A stretch of DNA of 64,000 bases from Sphingomonas sp. CROZ-RG-20F-R02-07 (lineage in GTDB: Bacteria > Pseudomonadota > Alphaproteobacteria > Sphingomonadales > Sphingomonadaceae): assembly GCF_022662335.1 (NCBI RefSeq), contig NZ_JAKNQJ010000001.1, positions 620,001-684,000 of the forward strand, read 5' to 3'. Positions 2,882 through 39,988 of the stretch are shown piece by piece (the first letter of the stretch is position 1; each line of letters begins with the position of its first letter). Both the position numbers and the translations under genes were made by a program. The notes beneath the pieces are model-generated. The model was not told the origin of the DNA, made no database searches, and saw only the letters and a list, made by a program, of their open reading frames with translations.

Positions 2882-4301
2882 GGTGGGCCTCCCGGCGCGT
2901 ACTATCCCGCGGCACATCGACTCTTATCGTGCAATGAACGCCATCGCCGGTAAAGGCGAAACTTGTCTTGGCGCCCATTTGATAGGGCAGCGCGCGTTCT
3001 ATCAGCTCCCGGCCATAGCCGCCGCCGCGCGGCTTGTCGCCGGGCGCGGGCAGGTCTGCCACCCCAGTTTCGCGCCAGTCGACGTGGAGCTGGGCCTCGC
3101 CCTTGTCGTTGGCGACGACTTCCCACCGCACGGTGAGGTGGCCGGCCGGCGTCGCCAGCGCGCCGTATTTGGCGGCATTGGTCGCCAGCTCGTGGAGCGC
3201 GAGCGCGAAGGTCTGCACCAGCGAACTTTCGAGCGGCACGCCACGCGGTCCGCTCAGAGTCATCTGCGGCGCATTGCCGTCGGCATCGAGATCAAGATGC
3301 GCGCCGAGCTCTTCGCGAAGCAACGCATCGAACGCCACCCGATGCGCGCCGCGCCGGGACAAAAGACCCTGAACCCGCGCGAGCGCGCTCATGCGATCAT
3401 CGATGCAGCGGCGGAACTCCTCCAGCGAGCTGCTGCCGCGCAAGGTGCGCAACATCACCGCCTGCACTACCGCCATCAGGTTGCGGGTGCGGTGCTGAAG
3501 CTCGTTCATCAGCACCGACTGCTGCTCCTGGAGCCGGATGATGTCGTCTACGTCGGTGGACGTGCCGAGCCATTCCAGCACGGCACCGTCCGGCGTGCGC
3601 ACCGGCGTGGCCCTGGTCTGGAAATGGCGATAGCCCTTGCCGGCCTGACACAATCGGGCTTCGAAGCTCAGCCCGTCATGCTTCTCGGCGCGGCTCCAAG
3701 CGTCGAGTGCCGCCTGCCGATCATCCGGGTGAAAGGCCTCCAGCCAGCCCATGCCGCGACTGTCCTCGTCCGACAGGCCGGTGTAGCCGGTCCATTGCGA
3801 GCTGGCCCAGGTCCATTCACCGCCATCGGCCGCACGCCAGACCAGCTGCGGCATTCCCTCGATCAGGGTGGTGAGGCGCAGTTCCGTCCGGCGTAGCGCC
3901 GCGTTGGTCGCGGTGATCTCGCGGGTGCGCGCCTGGATACGGCCCTCCAGATCCTCGTTGGCCCGTTCCAAATTGGTGTTGGCAACCTCCAGTTCTTCGG
4001 AGAGGACCTGCAACCCCTCGAACGCCACCTGAAGCTCTTCGTGCGCTTGGCTCTGCTTGAACTCGCTTTCGTCGGTGGAACGACCCGGTGCGGAAGTAGC
4101 CGCGGCAAGCACGCCTTGAGCCGTATTCGCGGCCTGCAACTCGCGCGCCAGCACGGTCACCCGCCGCAGCAGGCGGTCGCGATCCTCGACGGTCCGGCTA
4201 TTCTCCTCCAGCGCCGACTCGAGCGATGTCCGCAACTGCTCGTTCTCGTCCAGCAGCCTGGAGCGCTCGTCTTCGTGAATACCGGATGTCGACGCCGCCA
4301 T
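2862..4301 (-). CDS. PAS-domain HWE-type sensor histidine kinase
   Basis: A 479-residue cytoplasmic kinase without membrane segments. Residues 10-135 are mostly coiled coil (for example ERANEDLEGRIQAR). A PAS domain follows at about 145-260 (MPQLVWRAADGGEWTWASSQ and the PAC-like WLGTSTDVDD). The HWE dimerisation box has the phospho-accepting His near residue 270 in ELQHRTRNLMAVVQ. The ATPase part shows the HWE hallmarks: the N-box ALHELATNAAKYGAL with its extra His, and W-R-E in VDWRETG. The start at 4301 is the last Met before the coiled coil; longer starts would overlap the divergent CheB gene. It probably phosphorylates the downstream receiver. Confidence 0.9.
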   Translation of the reverse strand: MAASTSGIHEDERSRLLDENEQLRTSLESALEENSRTVEDRDRLLRRVTVLARELQAANTAQGVLAAATSAPGRSTDESEFKQSQAHEELQVAFEGLQVLSEELEVANTNLERANEDLEGRIQARTREITATNAALRRTELRLTTLIEGMPQLVWRAADGGEWTWASSQWTGYTGLSDEDSRGMGWLEAFHPDDRQAALDAWSRAEKHDGLSFEARLCQAGKGYRHFQTRATPVRTPDGAVLEWLGTSTDVDDIIRLQEQQSVLMNELQHRTRNLMAVVQAVMLRTLRGSSSLEEFRRCIDDRMSALARVQGLLSRRGAHRVAFDALLREELGAHLDLDADGNAPQMTLSGPRGVPLESSLVQTFALALHELATNAAKYGALATPAGHLTVRWEVVANDKGEAQLHVDWRETGVADLPAPGDKPRGGGYGRELIERALPYQMGAKTSFAFTGDGVHCTIRVDVPRDSTRREAHHVRTPA

Positions 4302-10913: not shown

Positions 10914-13900
10914 TCGGTGGTCTCGTCGACTGGGCGACCCGCGCGCGCGGGGTCGTGCTGCTGATGCTTGCGCTGCTGCTCTGCGCCGGGGGGTACGCGC
11001 TCTACTCGCTGCCGATGGAGGCCGTGCCCGACATCACGGGCGTGCAGGTCGAGGTCAACACGCCGGTGCCGGCCATGCCGCCCGACGTCATCGAACAGCG
11101 GATCACGATCCCGCTCGAGCGGGGCATGATGGGCGTGCCGGGCATGACCAAGATGCGCTCGCTGACCAAGTTCGGCCTGTCGCAGCTGACGCTCGAGTTC
11201 AAGGACGGCACCGACGACCTGCGCGCACGCGCGCTCGTGTCCGAGCGGCTGCAGCAGCTGGCGGGATCGCTGTCGTTCGGCGCGCAGCCGACGATGACGC
11301 CGATCTCGCCGGGCCTGGGTGAGATCTTCTACTACACGCTCGACTGGGCGCCGGGAGCCAAATCCCGCCCCGCCGATCCGCAGGAGGCGCTGGAGGAGCT
11401 CTACGAGACCCAGGAATACGGCGTGAAGATCGCGCTCCGCAAGGTCCCGGGCGTCGCGGAGGTCAACAGCAACGGCGGTTTGGAGGCGCAGTATCTGATC
11501 CAGCCGCGTCCCGACCGTTTGGCGGCATCGGGTATGACCTTCGACGAGCTGGCCAAGCGGGTCGGCGAGAACGTGCAGGATACTGGCGGCGGCATGATCT
11601 CGCGCGGGGCCGACCGGTTGACGGTTCGCACCACCGGCCATGTCGCGACCGTGCCTCAGATCGCCGCGCTGCCGGTCAAGTTCGCCGACGGCGTACGCCC
11701 GATGACGGTCGCCGATCTGGCGACCGTCGACATGGGTTCGCGCATCCGCATGGGGGCCGCTTCGTCCAACGGCCATCAGGTCGTGCTCGGCACGGTGATG
11801 ATGCTGGTGGGGGCGAACAGTCGCGATGTCGCGAACCGCGTGTCGGCCGCGCTACCGGCGATCCGGCAGGCGCTGCCGCCGGGAATGCGCCTGAACGTCG
11901 CCTACAGCCGGGCGACGCTCGTCGACGCGACCGTCGGCACCGTTCGGGACAATCTTTCCATCGGCGCGCTGCTGGTGTGCCTCGTCCTGCTCTTCGTTCT
12001 GGGCAGCTGGCGCGCCGCGCTGCTCGTCGCCATCGTCATCCCGACCGCATTTCTCTTCGCCGTCGGCGGCATGCGCATCGCGGGGGTGTCGGGCAATCTG
12101 ATGAGCCTGGGCGCACTGGATTTCGGGATGATCGTCGACGGCGCGATCGTCATCGTCGAGAACTCGCTCCGGCTGATGGCTTTGCGCCGCGCGGACAGGG
12201 GCGAAGACCTCGACGCCGAGGAACGCCGCCGCGCCGTCGTCGACGCATCGAAGGAGGTCGTGGGGCCGATGGTGTTCGGCGTCGTCATCATCACGCTCGT
12301 CTACGTCCCCATCCTCTCGCTCACCGGGGTGGAGGGCAAGACGTTCCACCCGATGGCGATCACGGTGATGCTCGCGCTGGTCGGCGCGCTGCTCATGGCA
12401 CTGACGCTCGTGCCGATGCTGACGGCGTGGGTGCTGCGACCGACCGGACAGATCGACGAGCCCGACAGCAAGAGCTGGGTGATCCGCCGGGCGACGGCCA
12501 TCTACCGCCCGGCGCTCGACTTCGCTCTTGCGCACACCTTGCTGATCGCCGGTGTGGCCCTGGCGCTGGCGCTCGGAGCAGGCTTCCTGTTCTCCGGCCT
12601 GGGCGCGGAGTTCGTGCCGAAGCTCGACGAGGGCTCGATCGCGACGATGGTGTACAAGCCGGTCAATATGAGCCTGGCAGACTCGCTTGCCACCGAACTC
12701 AAGAGCGAACGCGTCATCATGCGGCGCTTTCCGGCGGTCACCACGACCTTCTCGCGCATCGGCACGAGCGAGGTCGCGACCGACCCGATGCCGCCGAACC
12801 AGAACGACCTGTACATCTTCTACAAGCCCAAGGATCAATGGCCCAAGGGCGACGGCCAGCCGAAGGACAAGCAGGCCTTGATAAAAGGCATTCAGGATGT
12901 CCTGGACAAGCAGGTGCCGGGGCAGACGTTCGAATTCTCGCAGCCGATCGAGACGCGCTTCAACGAGATGCTGCAGGGGACTCGGTCCGACGTAGCGGTC
13001 AAGATCTTCGGCCAGGATTATGACAGGCTGGACAAGTTGACCGACCAGATCTCGGCCGTCCTCAGCAAACAGCCTGGCGTCGACAGCGTCGAGCCCGAGA
13101 CGCACGGCCGCGTCGACACCCTGTCCATCGTTCTCGATCGGGCCGCGCTCGTGCGATACAACCTGTCGGTGCAGGCGGTGAACGACGCGGTGAACGCCGC
13201 GCTGGCGGGCCAGACGGTCGGATCGCTGTTCAGCGAAGGGCATAGTCATGACGTCGTGGTTCGGATGACCGAGCCCGAGCGCGCCAGCGACACCGCCATT
13301 CTGCAGCTGCCGATCCGGGTGGGCACGGATGGGCTGATCCCGCTCGGCCGAGTGGCGTCGCTGAAGGTCGAGAAGACGGTCGATCCCATCATGCGCGACG
13401 ATTCGGACCGGCGAACCTCGCTGATGGTCAGCCTCGGCCAGAACGACGTCGAGGGGTTCGTGAACAAGGCCAAGGCGCAGCTGGCCAGGCAGGTGAAGAT
13501 GCCCGAGGGTTACCGCGTCGAGTTCCAGGGACAGTTCCAGAATCTGGAGACCGCCCGCGCGCGCCTGGCGCTCGTCGTACCCGCCGCGCTCGCGTTCATC
13601 TTCGTCCTGGTGGTCTTCGCCCTGGGCAGCTGGCGGCAGGCGGCCATCGTCTTCACCGGTATCCCGTTCGCCGTCACCGGCGGCGTCTACGCGCTGGTTC
13701 TTCGCGGCATGCCGTTCAGCATCACGGCGGCGATCGGCTTCATCGCGCTGCTCGGCGTCGCGATGCTGAACGGCCTCGTTCTGCTGTCGCACTTCAACAT
13801 GCTGCGCGAGGATGGCCAGGATCTCGATGACGCGGTTCATCACGGCGCGCTCGATCGGCTTCGTCCGGTGCTGGCCACCGCGCTCGTGGCGAGCATCGGC

Positions 13901-20639: not shown

Positions 20640-21053
20640 TCAGCGCACGCGCGTCCAGGTCTGGGTCTTGCAGAAGGGCACGAAGACGCAGCCGCGCACC
20701 TTCAACTGGTCGGCGCCGAGCGGCGTCACCTTGGCGCCGTAGGTCTTGCCGTCATCGGCGTTGTAGATCGATCCGCCGCTCCAGGCGTCGCCGTCGCGCG
20801 TGAAGCCGCTGAGGAATTGCAGGCCCTTGATCGGGCGGTTGCGCAGCGCGGCGTTCGCATTCTTGGCATCGCGCAGGTCAGGCTGGGTCCGCAGCAGATC
20901 GGACGTGACGATGCGGCCACAGATCGACGGGCCGCAATGCGTGATCTCGACGATCGCGTTGTGAGTCTCGGTCTTCCAATGGCCGATCGCGGTATCGGCA
21001 CCGGCGGGTGGCGCGGCGGCCAGCATCAGGCCCATCATGACGGATCCGATCAT
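20640..21053 (-). CDS. secreted DUF2147 domain protein
   Basis: A 137-residue exported protein; signal peptide MIGSVMMGLMLAAAPPAGA. The mature part carries the DUF2147 pattern: GHWKTETHNAIVEI, CGPSICGRIV, the central QFLSGFTRDGDAWSGGSIYN, DDGKTYGAKV, and LKVRGCVFVPFCKTQTWTRV at the end. Family members are small periplasmic beta-rich proteins, often next to lipid or fatty-acid genes, with unknown function. AAGGAG stands before two adjacent ATG codons (21056 and 21053); the second has the better spacing. It is followed by fadL after 47 bases, so the two probably form an operon. Confidence 0.88.
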   Translation of the reverse strand: MIGSVMMGLMLAAAPPAGADTAIGHWKTETHNAIVEITHCGPSICGRIVTSDLLRTQPDLRDAKNANAALRNRPIKGLQFLSGFTRDGDAWSGGSIYNADDGKTYGAKVTPLGADQLKVRGCVFVPFCKTQTWTRVR

Positions 21054-21217
21054 CATCCTCTCCTTCTTCCCCCACCCAAACCGGGCGGGATGGTGAAGCG
21101 CCGTATCTGTACGGTCGCGATCTGCGTCAGCCATTAGACCAAAGCGTGCACTGGCTGACCTATGCGGCAAGCAATTAATCCGCGAACCGCTCGCGTCAAG
21201 CGCCTTGTGTCTCGGGG

Positions 21218-29761: not shown

Positions 29762-31552
29762 ATGAACGATGCTCCCCGTCTGCGCAGCCGTGCGTGGTTC
29801 GACAATCCCGACAATATCGACATGACGGCGCTGTATCTGGAGCGTTATCTGAATTTCGGGCTCAGTCTGGAGGAGCTTCGGTCGGGCCGGCCGATCATCG
29901 GCATCGCCCAGACGGGCAGCGACCTTTCGCCGTGCAACCGCCACCATCTCGTGCTGGCCGAACGCGTGCGCGAGGGCATCCGCGAGATGGGCGGCATCGC
30001 GCTCGAATTCCCCGTCCACCCGATCCAGGAAACGGGCAAGCGTCCGACCGCGGGGCTGGATCGCAACCTCGCCTATATGGGGCTGGTCGAAACGCTCTAC
30101 GGCTATCCGCTCGATGCGGTGGTGCTGACGATCGGTTGCGACAAGACGACGCCCGCCTGCCTGATGGCCGCGGCCACCGTGAACATTCCGGCGATCGCGC
30201 TGTCCGTCGGGCCGATGCTCAACGGTTGGCACAAGGGCGAGCGCACCGGCTCGGGCACGATCGTGTGGAAGGCGCGCGAGCTGCTCGCGACGGGCGAGAT
30301 CGACGAGGCGGGTTTCATCAAGCTCGTCGCCTCGTCCGCGCCGTCCACCGGCTATTGCAACACGATGGGCACGGCCACCACGATGAACAGCTTGGCGGAA
30401 GCGCTGGGCATGCAGTTGCCGGGCTCGGCCGCGATCCCCGCGCCGTATCGCGATCGGCAGGAGGTGGCCTATCACACCGGCCGGCGGATCGTGGAAATGG
30501 TACACGAGGATCTGAAGCCCAGCGACATCCTGACGAAAGAGGCGTTCCGCAACGCCATCGTCGTCAATTCGGCGATCGGCGGATCGACCAACGCGCCGAT
30601 CCATCTGGCCGCGATCGCGCGTCACATCGGCGTCGACCTGCCGATCGATGACTGGCAGACGCATGGCCACAAGGTGCCGCTGATGGTGAACCTGCAGCCC
30701 GCAGGCGAATATCTGGGCGAGGATTTCTATCGCGCCGGCGGCGTTCCCGCGGTGGTGAGCGAACTCATGCGCCAGGGTCTGATCCACGAGGATGCGATCA
30801 CCGCCAACGGCAAGAGCATCGGCGACAATTGCCGCGAAGCGACGATCGAAGACGAAAAGGTGATCCACCGCTTCGCCGAGCCGTTGAAGGAGGAAGCGGG
30901 CTTTATCGTGCTGCGCGGCAATCTGTTCGACAGCGCGATCATGAAGACGAGCGTCATCAGCCCCGAATTCCGCGCCCGCTATCTTTCCAATCCGGACGAT
31001 CCCGATGCATTCGAAGGGCCCGCGGTCGTGTTCGACGGGCCGGAGGATTATCATCACCGGATTGACGATCCGTCGCTCGGCATCACCACCGATACGTTGC
31101 TCTTCATGCGCGGCGCGGGGCCGATCGGCTATCCGGGCGCGGCCGAAGTCGTGAACATGCGGCCGCCCGCCTATCTGATCCGCGAGGGGGTGCATGCGCT
31201 GCCCTGCATCGGCGATGGCCGGCAATCGGGCACGTCGGGCAGCCCGTCGATTCTGAACGCCAGTCCCGAAGCGGCGGCGATGGGCGGCTTGGCGCTAATC
31301 CGCACCGGCGACCGGGTCCGCATCGATCTGGGTCGCGGCAGCGCCGACGTGCTGATTCCCGATGACGAACTGGCCGAGCGGCGGCGGGCGCTGACCGCGA
31401 CGGGCGGCTATGCCTATCCCGCCTCGCAGACGCCGTGGCAGGAGATCCAGCGCAGTGTGGTCGGCCAGATGCAGGACGGCGCGATCCTCGAAGGCGCCGA
31501 GAAATACCAGCGCATCGCCCAGACGATGGGCCTGCCGCGCGACAACCACTGA
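29762..31552 (+). CDS. xylD: sugar-acid dehydratase, D-xylonate dehydratase type
   Basis: A 596-residue IlvD/Edd-family enzyme. The three iron-sulphur ligands are Cys58 ([11 protein letters not shown]), Cys126 ([13 protein letters not shown]) and Cys199 ([14 protein letters not shown]). The N-terminus [20 protein letters not shown] and [13 protein letters not shown] closely resemble Caulobacter XylD as I recall it and differ from L-arabinonate dehydratase of rhizobia. It would convert D-xylonate to 2-keto-3-deoxy-xylonate in the oxidative Weimberg or Dahms route. The preceding dehydrogenase and lactonase and the later keto-acid steps are not in the window. Substrate could also be another pentonate. 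Confidence 0.85.
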
Positions 31553-31559
31553 CACGCAT

Positions 31560-31592
31560 CCGCCGGGTGACGATGCATGTGCCACCCGGCGG
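31560..31592 (+). terminator. hairpin after the dehydratase gene
   Basis: CCGCCGGGTG and CACCCGGCGG are perfect 10-base arms around a 13-base loop, beginning 8 bases past the dehydratase stop. It probably ends the sugar operon and separates it from the Hsp70-like gene. No U tract. Confidence 0.65.
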
Positions 31593-31628
31593 CTTGCGGA
31601 CCCCGACGGGGCGTGTAGGGCGCGCGGC

Positions 31629-32927
31629 ATGACGAACCCTCCCCCCTTCGCGCTCGGACTGGATTTCGGCACCACCAACACCGTCGCCGCGGTAGCGCGC
31701 GGCGGGGTCGCCGAACTCGTGGCGCTGACCGGGCCGGATGGCGAGCCAGAACCGGTCTTCCGCTCGGCGCTCTGCTTCTGGCAGGATGACGACACCCGCG
31801 GCGGGATCGCGGCGGAGGGCGGCCCCTGGGCGATCGCGGAATATCTCGCCGATCCGGGCAGCAGCCGATTCCTGCAATCGTTCAAGTCGGTCGCCGCCAA
31901 CGCCTCGTTCGAACATGCGAGCGTGTTCGAACGCCGCTACCGGTTCGAGGAGCTCGGGCGGCTGTTCCTCGACAAGATGGCGGCGCGCGCCGGCGGTCTG
32001 CTCGACGGCGGCGCGGCGCGCGTCATCGTCGGGCGGCCGGTGACCTATGCCGGCCATCGCCCCGACGAAGCGCTGGCGCGCGAACGCTATGGGGCGATGA
32101 TGGCGGGACTCGGCGCCGAGATCCATTATGTCTACGAACCGATCGGCGCGGCGTTCAGCTATGCCGCGCGCATCACCGAACCCGCCACGATCCTGGTCGC
32201 CGATTTCGGCGGCGGCACCAGTGACTTCTCGGTCGTGCACATCGCCAAGCCTGGCGCGGCGCGGCGCTGCATCCCGCTGGGCTCGGCCGGCGTCGGCATC
32301 GCAGGCGACCGGTTCGACTATCGGCTGATGGACCAGCTCGTCCTGCCGCTGCTCGGCAAGGGCGGCGGCTATCGCTCGTTCGACAAGGTGCTGGAGATCC
32401 CCGGCGGCTGGTATGCCGATTTCGGCGACTGGTCGCGGCTCGCGCTGATGCGCAACCGGCGGACGCTGGCCGAACTGGAGACGCTGCGCCGCGCCGCGAT
32501 CGATCCTGCCGCGATCGGGCGAATGATCGCGGTGATCGAGGGCGAACAGGGCTATGCGCTCTACGATGCGGTGAGTGCGGCCAAACGCGCGCTTTCGACG
32601 GGCGAGGACGCACGCTTCGCGTTCGAAGGCGGCGGTCTTTCGATCGAGGCCGGGGTGACTCGCGCACAGTTCGAGGCGTGGATCGCGCCCGACGTGGCAC
32701 GGATCGAGGCGGCGGTGGACCGCGCGCTCGAATCGGCGGGCATCGGGGCCGCGGCGATCGACCGGGTGTTCCTAACCGGCGGCACCTCGCTCACGCCGCG
32801 GTTGCGCCGCCTGTTCGCCGAGCGGTTCGGCGAGGAACGCCTCGCGAGCGGTGGCGAACTCACGTCGGTGGCGCATGGCCTCGCGCTGATCGGCGAGCAG
32901 AACGACGTCGCCGCCTGGGCCGCATGA
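31629..32927 (+). CDS. Hsp70-family protein (YegD-like), nucleotide-binding domain only
   Basis: A 432-residue actin-fold ATPase. Phosphate loops are LGLDFGTTNTVAAVA at the N-terminus and ILVADFGGGTSDFSVVHI in the middle; the adenosine region is VFLTGGTSLTPRLRRLF. It lacks the substrate-binding domain and lid of DnaK and is close to the length of YegD (about 450). The client is unknown. It lies 64 bases upstream of the Pls-type synthetase gene, in the same direction, so it may be cotranscribed, though the ribosome sites are independent. As a lone yegD-like gene is common in proteobacteria, the association may be incidental. Confidence 0.88.
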   Translation: MTNPPPFALGLDFGTTNTVAAVARGGVAELVALTGPDGEPEPVFRSALCFWQDDDTRGGIAAEGGPWAIAEYLADPGSSRFLQSFKSVAANASFEHASVFERRYRFEELGRLFLDKMAARAGGLLDGGAARVIVGRPVTYAGHRPDEALARERYGAMMAGLGAEIHYVYEPIGAAFSYAARITEPATILVADFGGGTSDFSVVHIAKPGAARRCIPLGSAGVGIAGDRFDYRLMDQLVLPLLGKGGGYRSFDKVLEIPGGWYADFGDWSRLALMRNRRTLAELETLRRAAIDPAAIGRMIAVIEGEQGYALYDAVSAAKRALSTGEDARFAFEGGGLSIEAGVTRAQFEAWIAPDVARIEAAVDRALESAGIGAAAIDRVFLTGGTSLTPRLRRLFAERFGEERLASGGELTSVAHGLALIGEQNDVAAWAA

Positions 32928-32991
32928 CCACAAGAGTTCGCAACGCCGGCACCCCATGGCGCGTGGCGCGTTGAACGGGCACAGGAGCCTC

Positions 32992-35900
32992 ATGACCGCC
33001 ACCGATTTCGCCGACGTGCAGCAGCACGCAGCCCCCGATACCAAGCGCGAGGCCTCGATCGCCGCCGCACCTGCGCTCCGCCCGCAGGAGCCTTATGCGC
33101 GCGACGAACTGCTCCACGAGATCTTCGATGGCGTGGCGCGCGCGAACCACGCGTCGGTCGCACTCCAGTTGCTCGGCGCGGACGACGAATATGGCCGCCG
33201 GGATCACTGGACCTATGGCGACCTACGCCAGCGCAGCCTGGGGCTCGCGCATCACCTGCGCGGGCTCGGCATCGGGCGCGGCGACCGCGTCGTCATCTGC
33301 CTGCCGCGCGGGCTCGATCAATATATGGCGATCCTCGGCGTGTTGTGGACGGGGGCGGCCTATGTGCCGGTCGACTGGGGCTACCCCGCCGACCGGATCG
33401 ATTATATCGTGGGCGACAGCGGCGCGGCGTTGACGCTCACGCTGTCCGATCGCGTGGCCACGATCCCCGGTGCGACGCTCGCGATCGACGCCGCACTCGG
33501 CGATATCGCAGCGGAACTGCCCGAGGGGCTGACGCGGGCCGACACCGGGTCGGAACCGGACGATCTGGCGTACATCATCTACACCTCGGGCACGACCGGC
33601 CGCCCCAAGGGGGTGATGATCCGGCACCGCAACGCATGCCATCTCGTCCGCTGCGAAAGCGCGATCCTGGCGCTGGAGCCGAGCGACATCTGCTTCGGCG
33701 GGTTCAGCCTTGCCTTCGACATGTCGGTCGAGACGATGTGGACCGCGTTCTTCGTCGGCGCGCGCGTGATCGTGCCGACCGAGGCGCTGGCCAGCAGCGG
33801 GCCCGACATCGCCGTCGCGCTGGACGCCGCGGGCGTTACCATCTGGCACGTCGTGCCCTCGCTGCTCGCGCTGGTCGAGCATCCCTTGCCCAGCCTCCGC
33901 TTGCTGAACATGGGCGGCGAGGCCTGCCCGCCCGAACTGCCGCGGCGCCTCGCCCGGCCCGGGCTGCGGCTGCTCAACACCTATGGCCCGACTGAGACGA
34001 CGGTCACCGCGACTTGGACCGAGCTTCAGCCCGGCCAGCGGATCACGATCGGCAAGCCGCTTCCCGGCTATACCGCGTGGATCATCGACGAGGCGCTGCA
34101 GCCGGTACCGGCGGGCCAGGAGGGCGAGTTGATCCTCGGCGGCCCCGGCGTCGGCGCCGGCTATGTCAACCGGCCCGACCTCACCGCCGAAAAGTTCGTC
34201 ATGACGCCGTTCGATGGGCTGTCGGGCGTGCCCGAGCCGGTCTATCGATCGGGCGATCTCGTCCGGCTCGATGCCGCGGGCGACATCGATTTCGTCGGCC
34301 GGATCGACACGCAGGTGAAGATCCGCGGCTTCCGCGTCGAACTCGCCGAGATCGAGTCGGTCATCGGCGAATGGCCGGGCGTCGCGCAGACGGTCGTCCA
34401 GCTGTTCCGCGACGATGACGGCGCCGAATTCCTGGCCGCCTTCCTGCTGCCGCGCGGCGACGAGGCGATCGATCTCGCCGGACTGCGCGACCGCGTGAAG
34501 GAACGCCTACCGGGCTATATGCGCCCCGCCGCCTATCAGCTCCTCCAGGCGTTCCCCACCCTGCCTGCCTCGGGCAAAGTCGATCGCAAGGCGCTCGTCC
34601 GCCCGCAGGTGGAGGCGAGCGCCGATCATGTCGTGGTCGCGCCCTCCACGCCAATGGAGGCGAAGCTCCACGCGATCTGGGCCGCCGCCTTTTCGCCGCA
34701 ACCCGTCTCGGTGACGGACGATCTGTTCGACGATCTGGGCGGCCATTCGCTGAAGGCCGCGCGGCTCGTATCGTCGGCGCGCAAGGTGTCGGGCCTGGAA
34801 GGCCTGTCGCTGGAGGATCTCTACGCCGCCCCCACGATCCGCGCGCTGGCGCTGCGGATCGGTGGTGCGGCGCCCGTCGCGGTGCTGGACGAGACGAGCT
34901 TCCCGCGCGTCGGCGCCTGGACGCGGCGGCTGTGCGTCGCCGCGCAGACCGTCGCGCTGCTGCCGATCTTCGCGCTGGCGGGGCTGCAATGGTTCTTCCC
35001 CTATGTCGCCTATACCTGGCTGGCGGCGACCATGCCGCGGCTGGAGGCGCTGGCGATCAGCGGGCTGTCGTTCGTGCTGATCCCGATCGCGGCGATGCTG
35101 CTGTCGATCGCGGTCAAGTGGATCGTGATCGGCCGCTACAAGGCGGGCGATTATCCGCTTTGGGGCGGCTATTACTTCCGCTGGTGGCTGGTGCGCCGCG
35201 TGATCGGCGCCACCGCCACGCCTTATCTGGCGGGCACGCCGATGATCCGCGGCTATTACCGGATGCTGGGTGCGAAGATCGGGCGCGGAGTCCATATCGG
35301 CACGGGCATCATCGATGCGGCGGACCTCATCTCAGCGGGTGACGAGTCGATCATCAGCGATCAGGCGGTGCTGGCGACGAGCGCGGTGGAGCGCGGGCTG
35401 CTGCGGCTCGGCACCGCGACGATCGGCGCGGGCGCGTTCGTCGGATCGATGGCGGTAATCGGACGCGATGCGGCGCTGGGCGACGGCGCGGCGCTCGACG
35501 AGTTGTCGTCGCTCGCCGCCGGCGCCACGATCCCGGCGGGCGAACGCTGGGCCGGATCGCCCGCGCATCGGAGCGATCATGCGCCGAACCATGCCGACAC
35601 GCCGCCCGCCGGCGCGCGCGGGATCGGTCCGGCGATCGGGCTGTTCGTCGGCGCGCTGTTGCTGCCCCTCGTCGCCATCCTGCCGATCGCGCCCGGGCTG
35701 ATCGCGCTGATCGAGATCGACTGGGCGACGGCGGGCTATACCTATGAGCTGCTCGCGCCACTGCTGGCGGCCACCTATGTCATCATGATGTGCGTGCTGA
35801 CGGTGGCGGCGAAACGGCTGATCCTCGGCAAGGTGCGGCCCGGCGCCTATCCGCTGCGAAGCTGGTTCTATGTCCGCTACTGGTTCGTGCAGCAGGTCAA

Positions 35901-37023
35901 CGATCTGGCGCTCCGCCTGCTTCACCCGATCTTCGCCACGCTCTACGTGATCCCCTGGTATCGCGCGCTGGGCGTGAAGATCGGGCGGCGTGCGGAGATC
36001 TCGACGGCAAGCGCGATCGTGCCCGATCTGGTCGAGATCGGGGCGGAGAGCTTCATCGCCGATTCGGTGATCTTCGGCGCGGCGCGGATCGGCCGCGGCA
36101 CGATCAATCTCGCGCATACCCGGATCGGCCGGCGCAGCTTCATCGGCAATTCCGCCCTGCTGCCCACCGGCACCGCGATCGGCGACGAGGTGCTGATCGG
36201 CGTGCTCTCCAAGCCGCCCGCCGACCCGGCCCAGGCGCTCGAGCCCGGCAGCACCTGGTTCGGATCACCGCCGCTCCAACTGCCCGTGCGCCAGGTGAGC
36301 ACGATGTTCGACGAGGGCGCGCGGTTCAATCCGTCACGCCGGCTGATCGCCACGCGGCTGGCGATCGAGGCGGTGCGGATGACGCTGTCGCTCACCGTCT
36401 TCCTCGCGCTGTTCAGTCTGTTGCTCTCGGTGGTGGGCGATATCAGCGACATGGATCATGGCGGGTTGTTGATCGTGGCGAGCTTCCCGTTCCTCTATGT
36501 CGGGTTCGCGCTGGCGTGCGGTGCGTTCGTGCTGGCGCTGAAATGGATCGTCATGGGCCGCTACCGCGTCACCACGGCGCCGCTGTGGAGCACCTTCGTG
36601 TGGCGTACCGAGCTGGTAACCGCGACCTATGAGAATCTGGCGGTGCCGAACCTGCTGGAGCCGCTGCGCGGCACGCCCTGGCTGCCGCTGTATCTGCGGC
36701 TGATGGGCGCGAAGATCGGCAAGCGCTGCTATATCGATACCACCGATCTGACCGAACATGATCTCGTCCATGTCGGCGACGATGTGGCGCTGAACGACTT
36801 CGCCGGGCTGCAGACGCATCTGTTCGAAGACCGCGTGATGAAGGTCGGTGCGATCCGGGTCGGCGACCGAGCGACGATCGGATCGCTCGCGATCGTCCTC
36901 TACGACGCGGAGCTGGGCGCGGACGCGCAGCTCGGCGATCTGTCGGTGGTTATGAAGGGCGAGACGCTGCCGGCGGGCACGAGCTGGGAGGGCAGCCCCG
37001 CGCAGATCGCCGCTGCGGGGTGA
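32992..37023 (+). CDS. Pls-type nonribosomal peptide synthetase (A-T-membrane, three LbH domains)
   Basis: A 1343-residue membrane enzyme. Residues about 40-545 form an adenylation domain: YIIYTSGTTGRPKGVM near 194, LNTYGPTETTVTATW, YRSGDLVRLD, GRIDTQVKIRGFRVELAEIE and PASGKVDRKAL with the catalytic Lys. A carrier domain follows with Ser586 in DDLGGHSLKAAR. Then three repeats each consist of two helices (about 646/687, 877/919, 1129/1158), an aromatic linker (YYFRWWLVRR, FYVRYWFVQQ, FVWRTELVTA) and a left-handed-helix acyltransferase-like domain beginning Y-R-LGAKIG. This is the architecture of epsilon-poly-L-lysine synthetase (Pls) and PosA-type enzymes, which join amino acids without a condensation domain. 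ATG 32992 follows AGGAG. The product is unknown. Confidence 0.92.
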   Translation: MTATDFADVQQHAAPDTKREASIAAAPALRPQEPYARDELLHEIFDGVARANHASVALQLLGADDEYGRRDHWTYGDLRQRSLGLAHHLRGLGIGRGDRVVICLPRGLDQYMAILGVLWTGAAYVPVDWGYPADRIDYIVGDSGAALTLTLSDRVATIPGATLAIDAALGDIAAELPEGLTRADTGSEPDDLAYIIYTSGTTGRPKGVMIRHRNACHLVRCESAILALEPSDICFGGFSLAFDMSVETMWTAFFVGARVIVPTEALASSGPDIAVALDAAGVTIWHVVPSLLALVEHPLPSLRLLNMGGEACPPELPRRLARPGLRLLNTYGPTETTVTATWTELQPGQRITIGKPLPGYTAWIIDEALQPVPAGQEGELILGGPGVGAGYVNRPDLTAEKFVMTPFDGLSGVPEPVYRSGDLVRLDAAGDIDFVGRIDTQVKIRGFRVELAEIESVIGEWPGVAQTVVQLFRDDDGAEFLAAFLLPRGDEAIDLAGLRDRVKERLPGYMRPAAYQLLQAFPTLPASGKVDRKALVRPQVEASADHVVVAPSTPMEAKLHAIWAAAFSPQPVSVTDDLFDDLGGHSLKAARLVSSARKVSGLEGLSLEDLYAAPTIRALALRIGGAAPVAVLDETSFPRVGAWTRRLCVAAQTVALLPIFALAGLQWFFPYVAYTWLAATMPRLEALAISGLSFVLIPIAAMLLSIAVKWIVIGRYKAGDYPLWGGYYFRWWLVRRVIGATATPYLAGTPMIRGYYRMLGAKIGRGVHIGTGIIDAADLISAGDESIISDQAVLATSAVERGLLRLGTATIGAGAFVGSMAVIGRDAALGDGAALDELSSLAAGATIPAGERWAGSPAHRSDHAPNHADTPPAGARGIGPAIGLFVGALLLPLVAILPIAPGLIALIEIDWATAGYTYELLAPLLAATYVIMMCVLTVAAKRLILGKVRPGAYPLRSWFYVRYWFVQQVNDLALRLLHPIFATLYVIPWYRALGVKIGRRAEISTASAIVPDLVEIGAESFIADSVIFGAARIGRGTINLAHTRIGRRSFIGNSALLPTGTAIGDEVLIGVLSKPPADPAQALEPGSTWFGSPPLQLPVRQVSTMFDEGARFNPSRRLIATRLAIEAVRMTLSLTVFLALFSLLLSVVGDISDMDHGGLLIVASFPFLYVGFALACGAFVLALKWIVMGRYRVTTAPLWSTFVWRTELVTATYENLAVPNLLEPLRGTPWLPLYLRLMGAKIGKRCYIDTTDLTEHDLVHVGDDVALNDFAGLQTHLFEDRVMKVGAIRVGDRATIGSLAIVLYDAELGADAQLGDLSVVMKGETLPAGTSWEGSPAQIAAAG

Positions 37024-37691
37024 TCCCCGTCTGGCATGACGGGCCGCTCGCCACGCTCGTTCCCGGTCGCGGCCTCGTGGTCTGGAGCGTGGCAACGCGT
37101 ACCGATCCGGGCATCGTGCCCAGCGCCGAGGATCTGTCCGACGCGGCGCGGGTGACGGACGGCGCCGGGCGGCTCGCCAGGCGACTGCTGGCACGCGCAC
37201 TGGTGAGGCACGTCGCCGGGTGTGCGTCGGATGCCGTGACGATCCGCCGCGACGCGCATGGCGCACCCATCGTCGTCGCGCCCGCCGGCTGGTTCGTGAG
37301 CCTGTCCGGGCGCAGTGATCGGGCCCTGATCGGCGTCGCCCGCGTGCCGGTCGGCGTTGATCGCGAACCGCTGGCCTGTGGTGACGTCCCATGGGACATG
37401 TTGACGCCCGACGAGGCGGCGTCGCTTCAGGCGCTTCCGCCAGGTTCACAGTCCGCGGCCTGGCTGACCCGCTGGACGATCAAGGAAGCGCACGCCAAGC
37501 TCGTCGGCGAACCACGGCGAATCGCTCCCGAGGCGGTCGCGACGCATGTCGACCAAGCCGGCCATGGCGGCGCGACGTTCGAGGGGCGGTCCGGGAGCTG
37601 GACGCGGATCGCGTATCGCGGGGTGGAAACCGTCGCGATCTGGCAGGATGGGGTGCGTGGCGGCCTCGCATCGCCTAATGGCGCGACATGA
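37020..37691 (+). CDS. 4'-phosphopantetheinyl transferase (Sfp/EntD type)
   Basis: A 223-residue enzyme starting at GTG 37020, which overlaps the synthetase stop (GTGA). Sfp-type motifs appear in order: RRDAHGAPIV (the substrate-side G-x-P segment), FVSLSGRSDRALIGVA, VGVDREP with a magnesium-binding Asp and Glu, and LTRWTIKEAHAKLVGE (W-x-x-KEA-x-x-K). The His usual in the S-x-S-H motif is replaced by Gly-Arg, a mild divergence. It should attach phosphopantetheine to Ser586 of the adjacent synthetase. Strict coupling argues for a dedicated partner rather than a housekeeping enzyme. Confidence 0.85.
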   Translation: MIPVWHDGPLATLVPGRGLVVWSVATRTDPGIVPSAEDLSDAARVTDGAGRLARRLLARALVRHVAGCASDAVTIRRDAHGAPIVVAPAGWFVSLSGRSDRALIGVARVPVGVDREPLACGDVPWDMLTPDEAASLQALPPGSQSAAWLTRWTIKEAHAKLVGEPRRIAPEAVATHVDQAGHGGATFEGRSGSWTRIAYRGVETVAIWQDGVRGGLASPNGAT

Positions 37692-38218
37692 CCCGCATCG
37701 ATATTTGCCCCTATGTCGAGTCCGATCGCGCGGCGGCGCTCGCGATCTTCGATTCCAATCTTCCCGAATATTTCGGACCCGGCGAACGCGAATGGTTCGG
37801 CGATTCGCTCGACGAGCTCGACGGCCCCGCCTTCGTCGTCACCGTGGACGGCACGCCTGCCGCGTTCGGCGGGTATGAAATCTGGGACTATTATGACAAG
37901 GCGCTGCTCTGCTGGGGCATGGCGGCGCGAGCGCATCACAAGAGCGGGCTTGGCCGCCTATTGCTCTTCGAACGTCTGCTGCGGATCGCGCGCGAGGATT
38001 CACCGCGCACCCGCTACGTCACGGTCGATACGTCGCCACTCGTGTCGCCCTTTTTCCAGCATTGTGGGTTCGAACTGAGCAGCGTCTGGCCCGGCGGTTA
38101 TCGCTCGGGGCTCGACATGCACGAGCTCCGCTACGACCTGTCGGCCACGACGGAGGCAGCGCTGGTCGCCGCGCGCGATGCGGCATGGGCGCGGGCCGAA
38201 AGCCGGCTCGCGCCCTGA
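37688..38218 (+). CDS. GNAT-family N-acetyltransferase
   Basis: A 176-residue acetyltransferase. The acetyl-CoA pyrophosphate loop is KSGLGRLLLFERLLRIA (R/Q-x-x-G-x-G/A pattern), preceded by CWGMAARAHH and followed by YVTVDTSPLVSPFFQHCGF, which closes the GNAT fold. The ATG at 37688 overlaps the transferase stop by four bases. It is thus the third gene of a coupled NRPS operon and may acetylate the free amine of the peptide product, either to finish it or to protect the producer, as in several antibiotic operons. That role is inferred from position only. Confidence 0.85.
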   Translation: MTRIDICPYVESDRAAALAIFDSNLPEYFGPGEREWFGDSLDELDGPAFVVTVDGTPAAFGGYEIWDYYDKALLCWGMAARAHHKSGLGRLLLFERLLRIAREDSPRTRYVTVDTSPLVSPFFQHCGFELSSVWPGGYRSGLDMHELRYDLSATTEAALVAARDAAWARAESRLAP

Positions 38219-38222
38219 TCGC

Positions 38223-38630
38223 TTACCAGAAGTCCGCAGGGTTCGGGCTCGGCGCGTTGCACGCTGCCGGGTGGCCCTTGTGGCAAGCCTCGACCTGCGC
38301 GCGCCAAGCCATCATGGCATCGGCATAGGCGCGCTGCTGGTGCGCATAGACGCGTGCGTCGTTGGCGGCGATGCGATGGTTCGCCATCACTGCCTGGCGG
38401 TATGCCGCCATGTCCTGATCCGCGCTGCCCTGGACCGCGGCGTTGACCGCGTCCGTCGCGGCGGCCTGTTGCTGGCTCTGCGCCGCGGAGACGGCATTGG
38501 CCGCTGCCACGCCGGGCGCGCCGGCGGGCTGGGCATGACCCGTATTGTCGGTGTCGCTGACCTGCTGCGCGATCGCGCCGGTGGAGAGTAGGGCGGCCGA
38601 TGCGAGGCCGAGAAGAAAGATGCTTTTCAT
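38223..38630 (-). CDS. small secreted Ala/Gln-rich protein, stress-promoter controlled
   Basis: A 135-residue protein with signal peptide MKSIFLLGLASAALLSTGAIA. The mature part is rich in Ala and Gln (AAQSQQQAAATDAVNAAV), lacks membrane segments and has one Cys pair near the C-terminus (EACHKGHPAACNAP). No family recognised; similar small secreted proteins occur in sphingomonads. AGGA precedes the ATG at 38630; another ATG at 38639 is possible. An EcfG-type promoter lies just upstream, so expression in the general stress response is likely. It is convergent with the acetyltransferase gene, with four bases between stops. Confidence 0.8.
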   Translation of the reverse strand: MKSIFLLGLASAALLSTGAIAQQVSDTDNTGHAQPAGAPGVAAANAVSAAQSQQQAAATDAVNAAVQGSADQDMAAYRQAVMANHRIAANDARVYAHQQRAYADAMMAWRAQVEACHKGHPAACNAPSPNPADFW

Positions 38631-38663
38631 GATCGCCATCCTGTGTTGATCCATGTCGCGCCA

Positions 38664-38689
38664 AACGGCCGAACCGGCCTTAGCGTTCC
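38664..38689 (-). promoter_or_regulatory. EcfG-type general stress promoter
   Basis: On the minus strand GGAAC (38689-38685) and CGTT (38667-38664) are separated by exactly 17 bases, the consensus of the alphaproteobacterial general-stress sigma factor EcfG. The -10 element ends 34 bases before the start codon of the small secreted protein, so the position is right. Confidence 0.8.
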
Positions 38690-38692
38690 GGA

Positions 38693-39988
38693 TCACGCCA
38701 TGGCGTCGAGTAGCGTGTCGAGCTTCACACTGGCGAAGGTCGCGAAATTGTCGGCGACGCCATAAGGGAGCAGCAGCGTGCGATCGTGAACCAGCGCGCC
38801 GCAGCTATAGACGACGTTCGGCACATAGCCATCGCGTTCCTTGGGGCTGGGATGGACCAGGGGCAGCGTCATCCGCTTCAGCACCTTGGACGGATCGTCC
38901 TTGTCGAGCAGTGCCGCCCCCATGCAATAGGTGCGCACCGTGCCGACGCCGTGGGTGAGCACCAGCCAGCCCTCTTCGATCTCGATCGGCGAGCCGCAAT
39001 TGCCCATCTGGACGAACTCCCACGGCCATTTGGGCGTGATGAGCTTCTCGCCCGTTTCCCAGGTGTAGAGATCGTCGGACATGAGCAGCCAGACATTCTC
39101 GTTGTCCTGCCGCCCCAGCATCGCATAGCGACCACCGATCTTGCGCGGAAACAGCGCCATGCCCTTGGACTGCGCGGCGGCACCCTTCAGCGCCCGCATC
39201 TCGAAATTGCGGAAATCCTGCGCGTGCAGCATTTCGGACCGCGCGGCGCTGCCGCTGAACGCGGTGTAGGTGCCGAGATAATGGACCTCGCCGTCATCCT
39301 CCACGAAGCGGACCATGCGCAGATCCTCGATCCCCTGCCGCTGGCTCGGCGTCACCGGGAACAACACCGTCTCCGACGGATCCTCGCTGCCCTCGCAGCG
39401 GATGCAGACGACGGTATCCTCGCCATCGCCGTTCGCCGCCAGGATCTGCGGCGCGACGACCGTGTCGCTGACACGGTCGATCGTCACCGTTCCGTCGGCC
39501 GACCAGACACCCGTGCGGAAGGTGACCGATGAGACATGGCCCTCGCCGATCCCGCGCAGCGACATCGCAAAGCGAAGAGCGCCCTCGGGAACGCCGGACT
39601 GGTCGGTGGCGGGAACGATGCTCGGGTTGAACAGCGCCGCCGCTTCGAACGAATATTCCTCGGTGAAATAGGCACCGATCAGCAGCTTGTGATCGCGGTC
39701 CAGCGTGTCGGGATCGATCGTCAGCCCCTGCACCTCGTCGAAGCGGCGAAGCAACACCGCCTCGACATGGCGGTGGCGGCTGTTGAGCGCCCCCACGACT
39801 CGCTCGAGCTCGAACGCCAGATCCGCCGCGTCCAGCGTCATGACGCGATCGACGATCCGCTGGGCACGGCTATGCCCCTCCACGCGGAAGCCGTCCGGAT
39901 CGGACAGATCGAACGGCCGAAGCACCGTGCGCGACGGATCAGGGCGAAGGATCACTTCGAGATGGGTCATGATGTCGGTGCCGGGCAT
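38693..39988 (-). CDS. glycoside hydrolase family 130 (glycoside phosphorylase-like) protein
   Basis: A 431-residue protein with a five-bladed-propeller-like sequence. Landmarks of GH130 are FEAAALFNPSIVP near residue 113, QGIEDLRMVRFVEDDGEVHY (the Asp in the ED-R motif) and SPKERDGYVPNVVYSCGAL near the end. Family members phosphorolyse beta-mannosides such as mannosyl-glucose or mannan oligosaccharides, and a few hydrolyse them. AGGAG stands before ATG 39988. No signal peptide, so it acts on imported oligosaccharides. It lies downstream of an aldo/keto reductase gene and an MFS gene on the same strand. Confidence 0.85.
   Translation of the reverse strand: MPGTDIMTHLEVILRPDPSRTVLRPFDLSDPDGFRVEGHSRAQRIVDRVMTLDAADLAFELERVVGALNSRHRHVEAVLLRRFDEVQGLTIDPDTLDRDHKLLIGAYFTEEYSFEAAALFNPSIVPATDQSGVPEGALRFAMSLRGIGEGHVSSVTFRTGVWSADGTVTIDRVSDTVVAPQILAANGDGEDTVVCIRCEGSEDPSETVLFPVTPSQRQGIEDLRMVRFVEDDGEVHYLGTYTAFSGSAARSEMLHAQDFRNFEMRALKGAAAQSKGMALFPRKIGGRYAMLGRQDNENVWLLMSDDLYTWETGEKLITPKWPWEFVQMGNCGSPIEIEEGWLVLTHGVGTVRTYCMGAALLDKDDPSKVLKRMTLPLVHPSPKERDGYVPNVVYSCGALVHDRTLLLPYGVADNFATFASVKLDTLLDAMA

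What the first reader, a model, noticed from the sequence alone, without database searches (positions are those of the whole stretch)
31629..38218. Pls-type synthetase operon with its own carrier-activating enzyme and an acetyltransferase
The 1343-residue protein has the architecture of epsilon-poly-L-lysine synthetase: adenylation and carrier domains, then three helix-pair plus acyltransferase-like repeats in the membrane. Its gene is coupled by GTGA to an Sfp-type transferase and that by ATGA to a GNAT enzyme. Such a compact set suggests a self-contained pathway for a membrane-made homopolymer or isopeptide that is then N-acetylated. I know of no described product of this kind in sphingomonads.
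Basis: partly seen in the sequence, partly recalled or inferred. Interest (0 to 1): 0.85.

Follow-up and report, generated by a model that had tools for sequence, protein, structure and literature searches.

The report
Polyornithine-type synthetase operon with acetyltransferase
A three-gene operon in a Sphingomonas probably makes a short, positively charged chain of ornithine units, a kind of compound that can inhibit fungi; it carries its own activating enzyme and an acetylating enzyme that may protect the producer or modify the product. The chain-making enzyme belongs to a known family; I found no description of the package in the papers I could search.

Summary
In detail: a 1,343-residue synthetase (32992-37023), an Sfp-type phosphopantetheinyl transferase (37020-37691) and a GNAT (37688-38218), overlapping by 4 bases each. 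The synthetase is a full member of the known Pls/PosA family (TIGR02353, 805.7 bits, cut-off 423.1). Its pocket, DMEHNGTVTK, matches Acinetobacter delta-poly-L-ornithine synthetase PosA at 9 of 10 positions, so ornithine is the best prediction. The genes form one unit: in 151 Sphingomonas genomes a transferase homolog lies beside the synthetase in 21 of 21 carriers (one weak hit in 130 others), and close GNAT orthologs occur in 18 of 21 carriers and 0 of 130 others. The upstream Hsp70-like gene is not part of it. A GNAT of another subfamily (spermine/spermidine type) follows the synthetase in 6 of 6 sampled loci of a distant clade with a different pocket, and a synthetase-GNAT-transferase trio occurs in Aureimonas. 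Two separate recruitments of acetyltransferases suggest that the polycation is acetylated, as self-protection or tailoring; that step is inferred and no product is known. Family and substrate are known, the gene set is the new part.

The parts
32992..37023 (+). Pls/PosA-family synthetase: adenylation, carrier and membrane-embedded terminal domain
33211..34398 (+). adenylation domain (residues 74-469); pocket residues 243, 244, 247, 286, 306, 308, 330, 338, 339, 529 = DMEHNGTVTK (529 lies just beyond this stretch)
   Evidence: TIGR01733; alignment to PosA 8g95/8g97 and Pls 7wew
34663..34854 (+). carrier domain (residues 558-621) with Ser586
   Evidence: PF00550 33.3 bits
34912..35127 (+). helix hairpin 1 (residues 641-712)
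   Evidence: predicted structure
35269..35580 (+). beta-helix 1 (about residues 760-863)
   Evidence: predicted structure
35623..35826 (+). helix hairpin 2 (residues 878-945)
   Evidence: predicted structure
35971..36264 (+). beta-helix 2 (about residues 994-1091), PF00132 best stretch
36337..36555 (+). helix hairpin 3 (residues 1116-1188)
   Evidence: predicted structure
36706..37020 (+). beta-helix 3 (about residues 1239-1343), with Q1274, H1276, E1279, K1284, K1322, E1324 invariant in 34 of 34 aligned terminal domains
37020..37691 (+). Sfp-type 4'-phosphopantetheinyl transferase, GTG start, 4-base overlap with the synthetase
   Evidence: PF01648 29.4 bits, cut-off 25; D114, E116, E156 in 60 of 60 and K160 in 59 of 60 aligned homologs
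37688..38218 (+). GNAT acetyltransferase, 4-base overlap with the transferase
   Evidence: PF00583 23.9 bits, cut-off 20.7; predicted GNAT fold, pLDDT 92.5; linkage

Best explanation
A self-contained operon for a cationic isopeptide homopolymer, most likely delta-poly-L-ornithine. The adenylation domain activates L-ornithine (inferred from the pocket). The neighbouring transferase puts phosphopantetheine on Ser586 of the carrier domain (inferred from family and linkage). The membrane-embedded terminal domain, three helix hairpins with three beta-helix stretches, joins the side-chain amine of one unit to the carboxylate of the next (reported for PosA, inferred here). The GNAT then acetylates amines of the chain, to disarm product inside the cell or to cap or tune it (inferred from linkage and from a parallel case in another clade). 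Shown here: gene identities, overlaps, pocket residues, predicted architecture and the conserved gene set.
For: TIGR02353 805.7 bits, cut-off 423.1. Pocket 9 of 10 identical to PosA, including the residues that in PosA contact the alpha-amine (Asp217) and side-chain amine (Glu221, Thr304) and set chain length (Met218); Ser313 is Thr. Transferase homolog beside the synthetase in 21 of 21 carriers of 151 genomes; close GNAT orthologs at the operon in 18 of 21 carriers and in 0 of 130 others. In 37 distinct loci whose synthetase is at least 75% identical, transferase adjacent in 37 and a GNAT homolog in 35. A second, unrelated-by-BLAST GNAT type, matching solved spermine/spermidine acetyltransferases at E 6e-18, follows the synthetase in 6 of 6 loci of another clade. 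Precedents for acetylation as self-resistance to cationic non-ribosomal products: PamZ and OatA (abstracts).
Against: No product or enzyme assay. Three carriers with this pocket (G049, G063, G116) and at least 22 of 24 loci of the 62-75% identity class have the transferase or are complete there but no adjacent GNAT, so the GNAT is dispensable for the basic pathway. Two close loci (L106, L109) also lack it. The GNAT's fold model matches many GNATs at tied scores, so it does not point to a substrate. A GNAT acting on another amine would show the same linkage. PosA itself stands alone, without either partner.
Confidence: 0.6

Rival explanations
1. The synthetase and transferase make delta-poly-ornithine, but the GNAT acts on something else (a small amine or a protein) and merely shares the transcript.
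For: The GNAT is missing from 3 of 21 carriers and from 2 of 37 close loci (L106, L109), and no substrate can be read from sequence or fold.
Against: 0 of 130 genomes without the over-cut-off synthetase hold a close ortholog, 4-base coupling is also seen in S. parapaucimobilis, and a different GNAT sits beside a distant synthetase in 6 of 6 loci.
Confidence: 0.25
2. The product is built from another diamino acid (for example lysine or 2,4-diaminobutyrate) or is a short oligomer or conjugate, not delta-poly-ornithine.
For: One pocket residue differs from PosA (Ser313 to Thr); pocket codes are degenerate (PMC10522769); PosA also activates lysine, with over 160-fold lower efficiency.
Against: Met at the chain-length position, as in PosA; lysine enzymes have Ala and DAP/DAB enzymes Phe. 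The code is the same in 102 of 147 rows examined, duplicates included.
Confidence: 0.2
3. The GNAT acetylates only one amine, at the chain end or on a starter unit, so that it sets chain length or protects the end, and is part of synthesis rather than of immunity.
For: The predicted fold matches N-terminal alpha-amine acetyltransferases (RimI, Ard1; Z 17.2-18.4) among many tied GNATs. In a delta-linked chain every unit keeps a free alpha-amine beside a carbonyl (established chemistry).
Against: The pocket keeps Asp243, the counterpart of PosA Asp217 that binds a free alpha-amine, so an alpha-acetylated monomer should not be loaded; nothing tested here separates end-capping from acetylation along the chain.
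Confidence: 0.15

Closest known systems
PosA, delta-poly-L-ornithine synthetase of Acinetobacter baumannii (PMC10522769; parts 1-5 of 8 read)
   Same: Same three-part architecture; pocket 9 of 10 identical
   Different: posA is described as a single-gene operon without co-transcribed neighbours; here a transferase and a GNAT overlap the synthetase
Pls, epsilon-poly-L-lysine synthetase of Streptomyces, and its Corynebacterium homolog (PMC8117764, passages)
   Same: Same family and domain order
   Different: Ala instead of Met at the chain-length position; the partner gene there is a peptidase postulated to protect the producer, here a GNAT
Synthetase-GNAT loci of Hyphomicrobiales (Phyllobacterium sp. 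T1293, Aureimonas sp. AU20)
   Same: Pls/PosA-family synthetase directly followed by a GNAT; Aureimonas also has the transferase
   Different: Different GNAT subfamily (no significant BLASTP match between the Aureimonas GNAT and the window's), gene order GNAT-transferase in Aureimonas, distant synthetase clade
Self-resistance acetyltransferases PamZ (paenilamicin) and OatA (odilorhabdin) (PMC9054821, PMC8749412; abstracts and outlines)
   Same: N-acetyltransferase gene linked to genes for a cationic non-ribosomal product
   Different: No evidence of homology was sought; PamZ is a tandem-domain protein (abstract); self-resistance is shown there and only proposed here

Membership tests
Pls/PosA family (cationic homo-poly-amino acid synthetases) | Terminal domain TIGR02353 over its curated cut-off | tested here: met
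   805.7 bits, cut-off 423.1, profile positions 2-695 of 695
Pls/PosA family (cationic homo-poly-amino acid synthetases) | Adenylation and carrier domains, no condensation or thioesterase domain | tested here: met
   Pfam lists PF00501, PF13193, PF00550 and hexapeptide families only, at E up to 0.001; Ser586
Pls/PosA family (cationic homo-poly-amino acid synthetases) | Six helices in three pairs separating three beta-helix parts | tested here: met
   predicted structure, pLDDT 90.7; membrane insertion itself not tested
Pls/PosA family (cationic homo-poly-amino acid synthetases) | Pocket Asp and Glu that bind the two amines of a diamino acid | tested here: met
   D243 and E247 align with PosA Asp217 and Glu221
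Pls/PosA family (cationic homo-poly-amino acid synthetases) | Makes an isopeptide-linked homopolymer | not testable with these tools
   needs enzyme assay and mass spectrometry
PosA type (ornithine) | Pocket code DMEHNGTVSK | tested here: inconclusive
   9 of 10 identical, last variable place Thr for Ser; activity untested
Sfp-type phosphopantetheinyl transferase | PF01648 over its cut-off with conserved Asp, Glu and Lys | tested here: met
   29.4 bits, cut-off 25; D114, E116, E156 60 of 60, K155 57 of 60, K160 59 of 60. Below the NCBIfam cut-offs
GNAT superfamily acetyltransferase | PF00583 over its cut-off and GNAT fold | tested here: met
   23.9 bits, cut-off 20.7; fold model pLDDT 92.5 with GNAT matches
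Spermine/spermidine acetyltransferase type GNAT | Sequence match of the window's GNAT to solved members 2fl4 or 9dsb | tested here: inconclusive
   phmmer of P0003 listed only 9cr5, at E 0.029; the GNAT of L077 does match them, E 6e-18

The most novel reading that the evidence does not exclude
Bacteria that make cationic isopeptide homopolymers have at least twice independently recruited an acetyltransferase into the synthetase operon to acetylate the polymer. In sphingomonads this gives a partly N-acetylated delta-poly-ornithine, or an acetylation-based immunity to it, a route different from the peptidase that accompanies pls in Streptomyces and Corynebacterium.
Probability: 0.4. Interest if true: 0.7.

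Novelty: new variant of a known kind. Interest (0 to 1): 0.5.

Why it matters
The PosA paper states that before it such polymers had been identified from Actinomycetes and from no other bacteria (abstract), and it leaves the role of the polymer in the cell open. A compact operon shared by many Sphingomonas, four of them with Leaf-series strain names (Leaf21, Leaf208, Leaf230, Leaf242), all four with the GNAT, would allow product, linkage and the purpose of the acetyltransferase to be tested by single-gene deletions outside a pathogen. If acetylation is the immunity or tuning step, it would be a second protective route for these polymers beside the peptidase of pls operons.

Tried and rejected
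Hsp70-like gene 31629-32927 as a fourth operon member: rejected (107 of 151 genomes; of 87 fetched loci plus the window, found only in the window and L067). Empty-site comparison: in 7 genomes without the synthetase the Hsp70-like gene was found but none of the other 13 window genes searched, so no insertion site could be drawn. Promoter and terminator scan of 31400-38800: 1 promoter-like and 2 terminator-like sites against 0.6 and 1.8 in shuffles. PADLOC: nothing for synthetase or GNAT, one weak hit (E 0.007) for the Hsp70-like protein. GNAT fold search: many GNATs at tied Z, no substrate assignment. Acidic residues of operon GNATs: mean net charge -7.6 in 30 rows (one of them, L118, not adjacent to its synthetase) against -2.9 in 7 paralogs, and 7 acidic columns peculiar to the operon rows against 0 for the paralogs, but also 9 aromatic and 7 aliphatic ones: it fits a polycation substrate but is weak, the 30 being close kin. 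Neighbour calling by GC3 chose shadow ORFs in places and missed 5 synthetases; it was replaced by tblastn and profile searches. A profile hit to a transferase in L121 (E 3.5e-5) lies in a frame that runs over the synthetase and was not counted. The PosA paper's supplement could not be read, so whether it lists sphingomonads is unknown.

Searches of papers behind 'no description found': (open-licence PubMed Central papers only). One search listed 10 papers with both NAPAA (the antiSMASH class for such clusters) and Sphingomonas; in PMC9716278 I saw one passage, a figure legend that names the class in a study of Sphingomonas genomes. The other nine were seen in the listing only.

Full report
Observation. 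The window holds three head-to-tail genes: 32992-37023 (1,343 aa), 37020-37691 (223 aa, GTG start) and 37688-38218 (176 aa), with 4-base overlaps GTGA and ATGA. The first-stage coordinates begin at 31629 and so also take in an Hsp70-like gene.

What the synthetase is. It scores 805.7 bits against TIGR02353, 'Pls/PosA family non-ribosomal peptide synthetase' (cut-off 423.1), and 409.4 against the amino acid adenylation model. Pfam finds adenylation, carrier and hexapeptide families and no condensation or thioesterase domain at E up to 0.001. A predicted structure of residues 640-1343 (34-row alignment, pLDDT 90.7, pTM 0.91) has three helix hairpins, each followed by a stretch of short strands, in line with the description of the PosA model in the PosA paper. 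Foldseek matches beta-helix acetyltransferases over part of it, with TM-scores of at most 0.16 by model length in the 50 rows shown; a sequence search of solved structures with this domain gave only weak hexapeptide-repeat and other hits, best E 3e-5. Q1274, H1276, E1279, K1284, K1322 and E1324 of the third repeat are invariant in the 34 aligned terminal domains; a catalytic role is my inference.

Substrate. For the pocket region (residues 200-361) the best solved relatives are the PosA adenylation domain (E 2.5e-44) and Pls 7wew (1.4e-30). The ten pocket positions read DMEHNGTVTK against DMEHNGTVSK printed for PosA. Identical are the residues that in PosA contact the alpha-amine (Asp217) and the side-chain amine (Glu221, Thr304) and the one proposed to set chain length (Met218); Ser313 is Thr. 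Pls has Ala at the chain-length place. Of 147 rows (duplicates and fragments included), 102 have exactly this code. I read parts 1 to 5 of 8 of the PosA paper; its main text does not contain the word Sphingomonas, its supplement could not be read.

One unit. The genus is Sphingomonas by named contigs of the same length (for example G127:C13 and Sphingomonas sp. OK281, both 253,005 bases). Of 151 genomes 21 carry the synthetase over the cut-off, and two more (G082, G132) carry a divergent full-length one below it. A transferase homolog at E 1e-10 or better occurs in 22 of 151: the 21 carriers, in each case at the synthetase, and G028, a weak hit. A GNAT homolog at 1e-15 or better occurs in 24 of 151: 18 carriers, at the operon, with 58% identity or more, and 6 non-carriers with 37-42%; the carrier G068 also has such a paralog. 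Three carriers (G049, G063, G116) have no match. Fisher's test for the GNAT gives 1.5e-20, inflated by kinship. Among 105 rows of loci (counted), 38 have a synthetase at least 75% identical to the window's; L039 and L109 are one contig, so 37 distinct. A transferase homolog is adjacent in 37 and a GNAT homolog in 35 (not in L106 and L109). Two of the 35 are not clean: the GNAT match of L112 has a stop at codon 80, and in L151 synthetase, transferase and GNAT are all matched in pieces. In the 62-75% class (24 rows: Sphingomonas, Novosphingobium, Caulobacter and others) BLAST found an adjacent transferase in 21 and a profile one more (L044); L141 ends at the contig edge; L121 has none that I trust; none of the 24 has an adjacent GNAT. 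Under 62% there are 43 rows, 32 of them with only about 1.5 kb of flank: BLAST found one adjacent transferase (L043), a profile also found divergent ones in L042, L072, L075, L081 and L082, four of these five at or over the Pfam cut-off and L042 just below it.

Neighbours. Rough gene calling on 66 loci found no other neighbour family in more than 11 of them; some flanks are shared within close subgroups. In 21 loci printed in detail, mostly without the GNAT, the genes beyond the synthetase and transferase differ. The Hsp70-like gene is in 107 of 151 genomes. RefSeq annotates the same trio, with 4-base overlaps, on a 385-kb plasmid of Sphingomonas parapaucimobilis.

A parallel case. A weak profile hit led to a second type of GNAT directly after the synthetase in 6 of 6 loci with pocket DFEALGTVTK, from one unnamed alphaproteobacterial genus; its synthetases are up to 84% identical to that of a Phyllobacterium, so Hyphomicrobiales is my inference. 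The GNAT of L077 matches solved spermine/spermidine acetyltransferases (E 6e-18); the window's GNAT matched only 9cr5, at E 0.029. I opened 7 annotated plasmid loci of the 44 and 21 records with hits: S. parapaucimobilis (above); Phyllobacterium sp. T1293, synthetase-GNAT; Aureimonas sp. AU20, synthetase-GNAT-transferase with a 4-base overlap at the first junction; Shinella sp. H4-D48 and Rhizobium sp. CCGE532, synthetase-transferase and no GNAT beside; Skermanella rosea, ectB beside it and neither partner; Azospirillum thermophilum, neither. The Aureimonas GNAT is 64% identical to the L077 GNAT and has no significant match to the window's. On a quick tree of 87 synthetases (close clade reduced to window, L106, L109 and 12 random rows, plus L199; rows under 600 residues and L141 left out) the two GNAT-bearing groups are separated by supported but very long branches, and the program warns of long-branch joins. 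Two recruitments are the simplest reading.

How it likely works. Ornithine activation, carrier loading and isopeptide polymerisation follow from the family. The GNAT step is inferred. Precedents, known to me from abstracts and outlines: OatA acetylates odilorhabdins and PamZ paenilamicin, both for self-resistance. [quoted passage not shown] a GNAT could fill that place here. Its predicted fold (pLDDT 92.5) matches many GNATs at tied scores, N-terminal alpha-amine acetyltransferases among them. Every unit of a delta-linked chain exposes an alpha-amine beside a carbonyl, which would suit such an enzyme; this is chemistry, not evidence.

Verdict. The family and the likely ornithine substrate are known; the coupled transferase and above all the acetyltransferase are the new part. 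Nine searches of open-licence papers showed me no description of this operon; the cluster class is named in a genome study of Sphingomonas.

Noticed in passing
L066 (G132) and L067 (G082), two Sphingomonas genomes: A second, divergent synthetase (35% identity; 368 and 363 bits, below the TIGR02353 cut-off) with pocket DSECYGGVTK, the code that the PosA paper gives for a Bdellovibrionales enzyme activating arginine weakly; no transferase or GNAT of the window's type beside it.
   Followed up: partly
window 31629-32927; L067; G132:C1:567037-568323: The Hsp70-like gene lies next to the operon in the window and within about 15 kb of the divergent synthetase in both G082 and G132, although it is unlinked in the other operon loci fetched; perhaps a shared insertion region.
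   Followed up: partly
L077-L080, L083, L085; L200; L201: Synthetases with pocket DFEALGTVTK or their close relatives are followed by a GNAT of spermine/spermidine acetyltransferase type; in Aureimonas sp. AU20 a transferase follows too.
   Followed up: yes
L203 (Skermanella rosea plasmid pSR-1) 3591-9121: ectB (diaminobutyrate--2-oxoglutarate transaminase) lies directly before a Pls/PosA-family gene, which suggests a diaminobutyrate polymer there.
   Followed up: no
G000:C10:815-2440 and 20993-21205: The window's genome has another NRPS-like adenylation gene and, 18 kb away on the same contig, a second long PF01648 gene.
   Followed up: no
L068 and L043: Synthetases with unusual pockets, DVEANGTGSK and DFECLSAVTK (the latter with an adjacent transferase); substrates unknown.
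   Followed up: no
L118 (Sphingomonas beigongshangi) 3663-4178: A 62% identical GNAT homolog lies about 8.3 kb upstream of the synthetase's end in a locus that has the transferase but no adjacent GNAT.
   Followed up: no
L112 (Sphingomonas abaci) 12538-13029; L151 (Sphingomonas sp. H160509): The GNAT match of L112 has an in-frame stop at codon 80, and in L151 all three genes match in pieces: decayed copies or sequencing errors.
   Followed up: no
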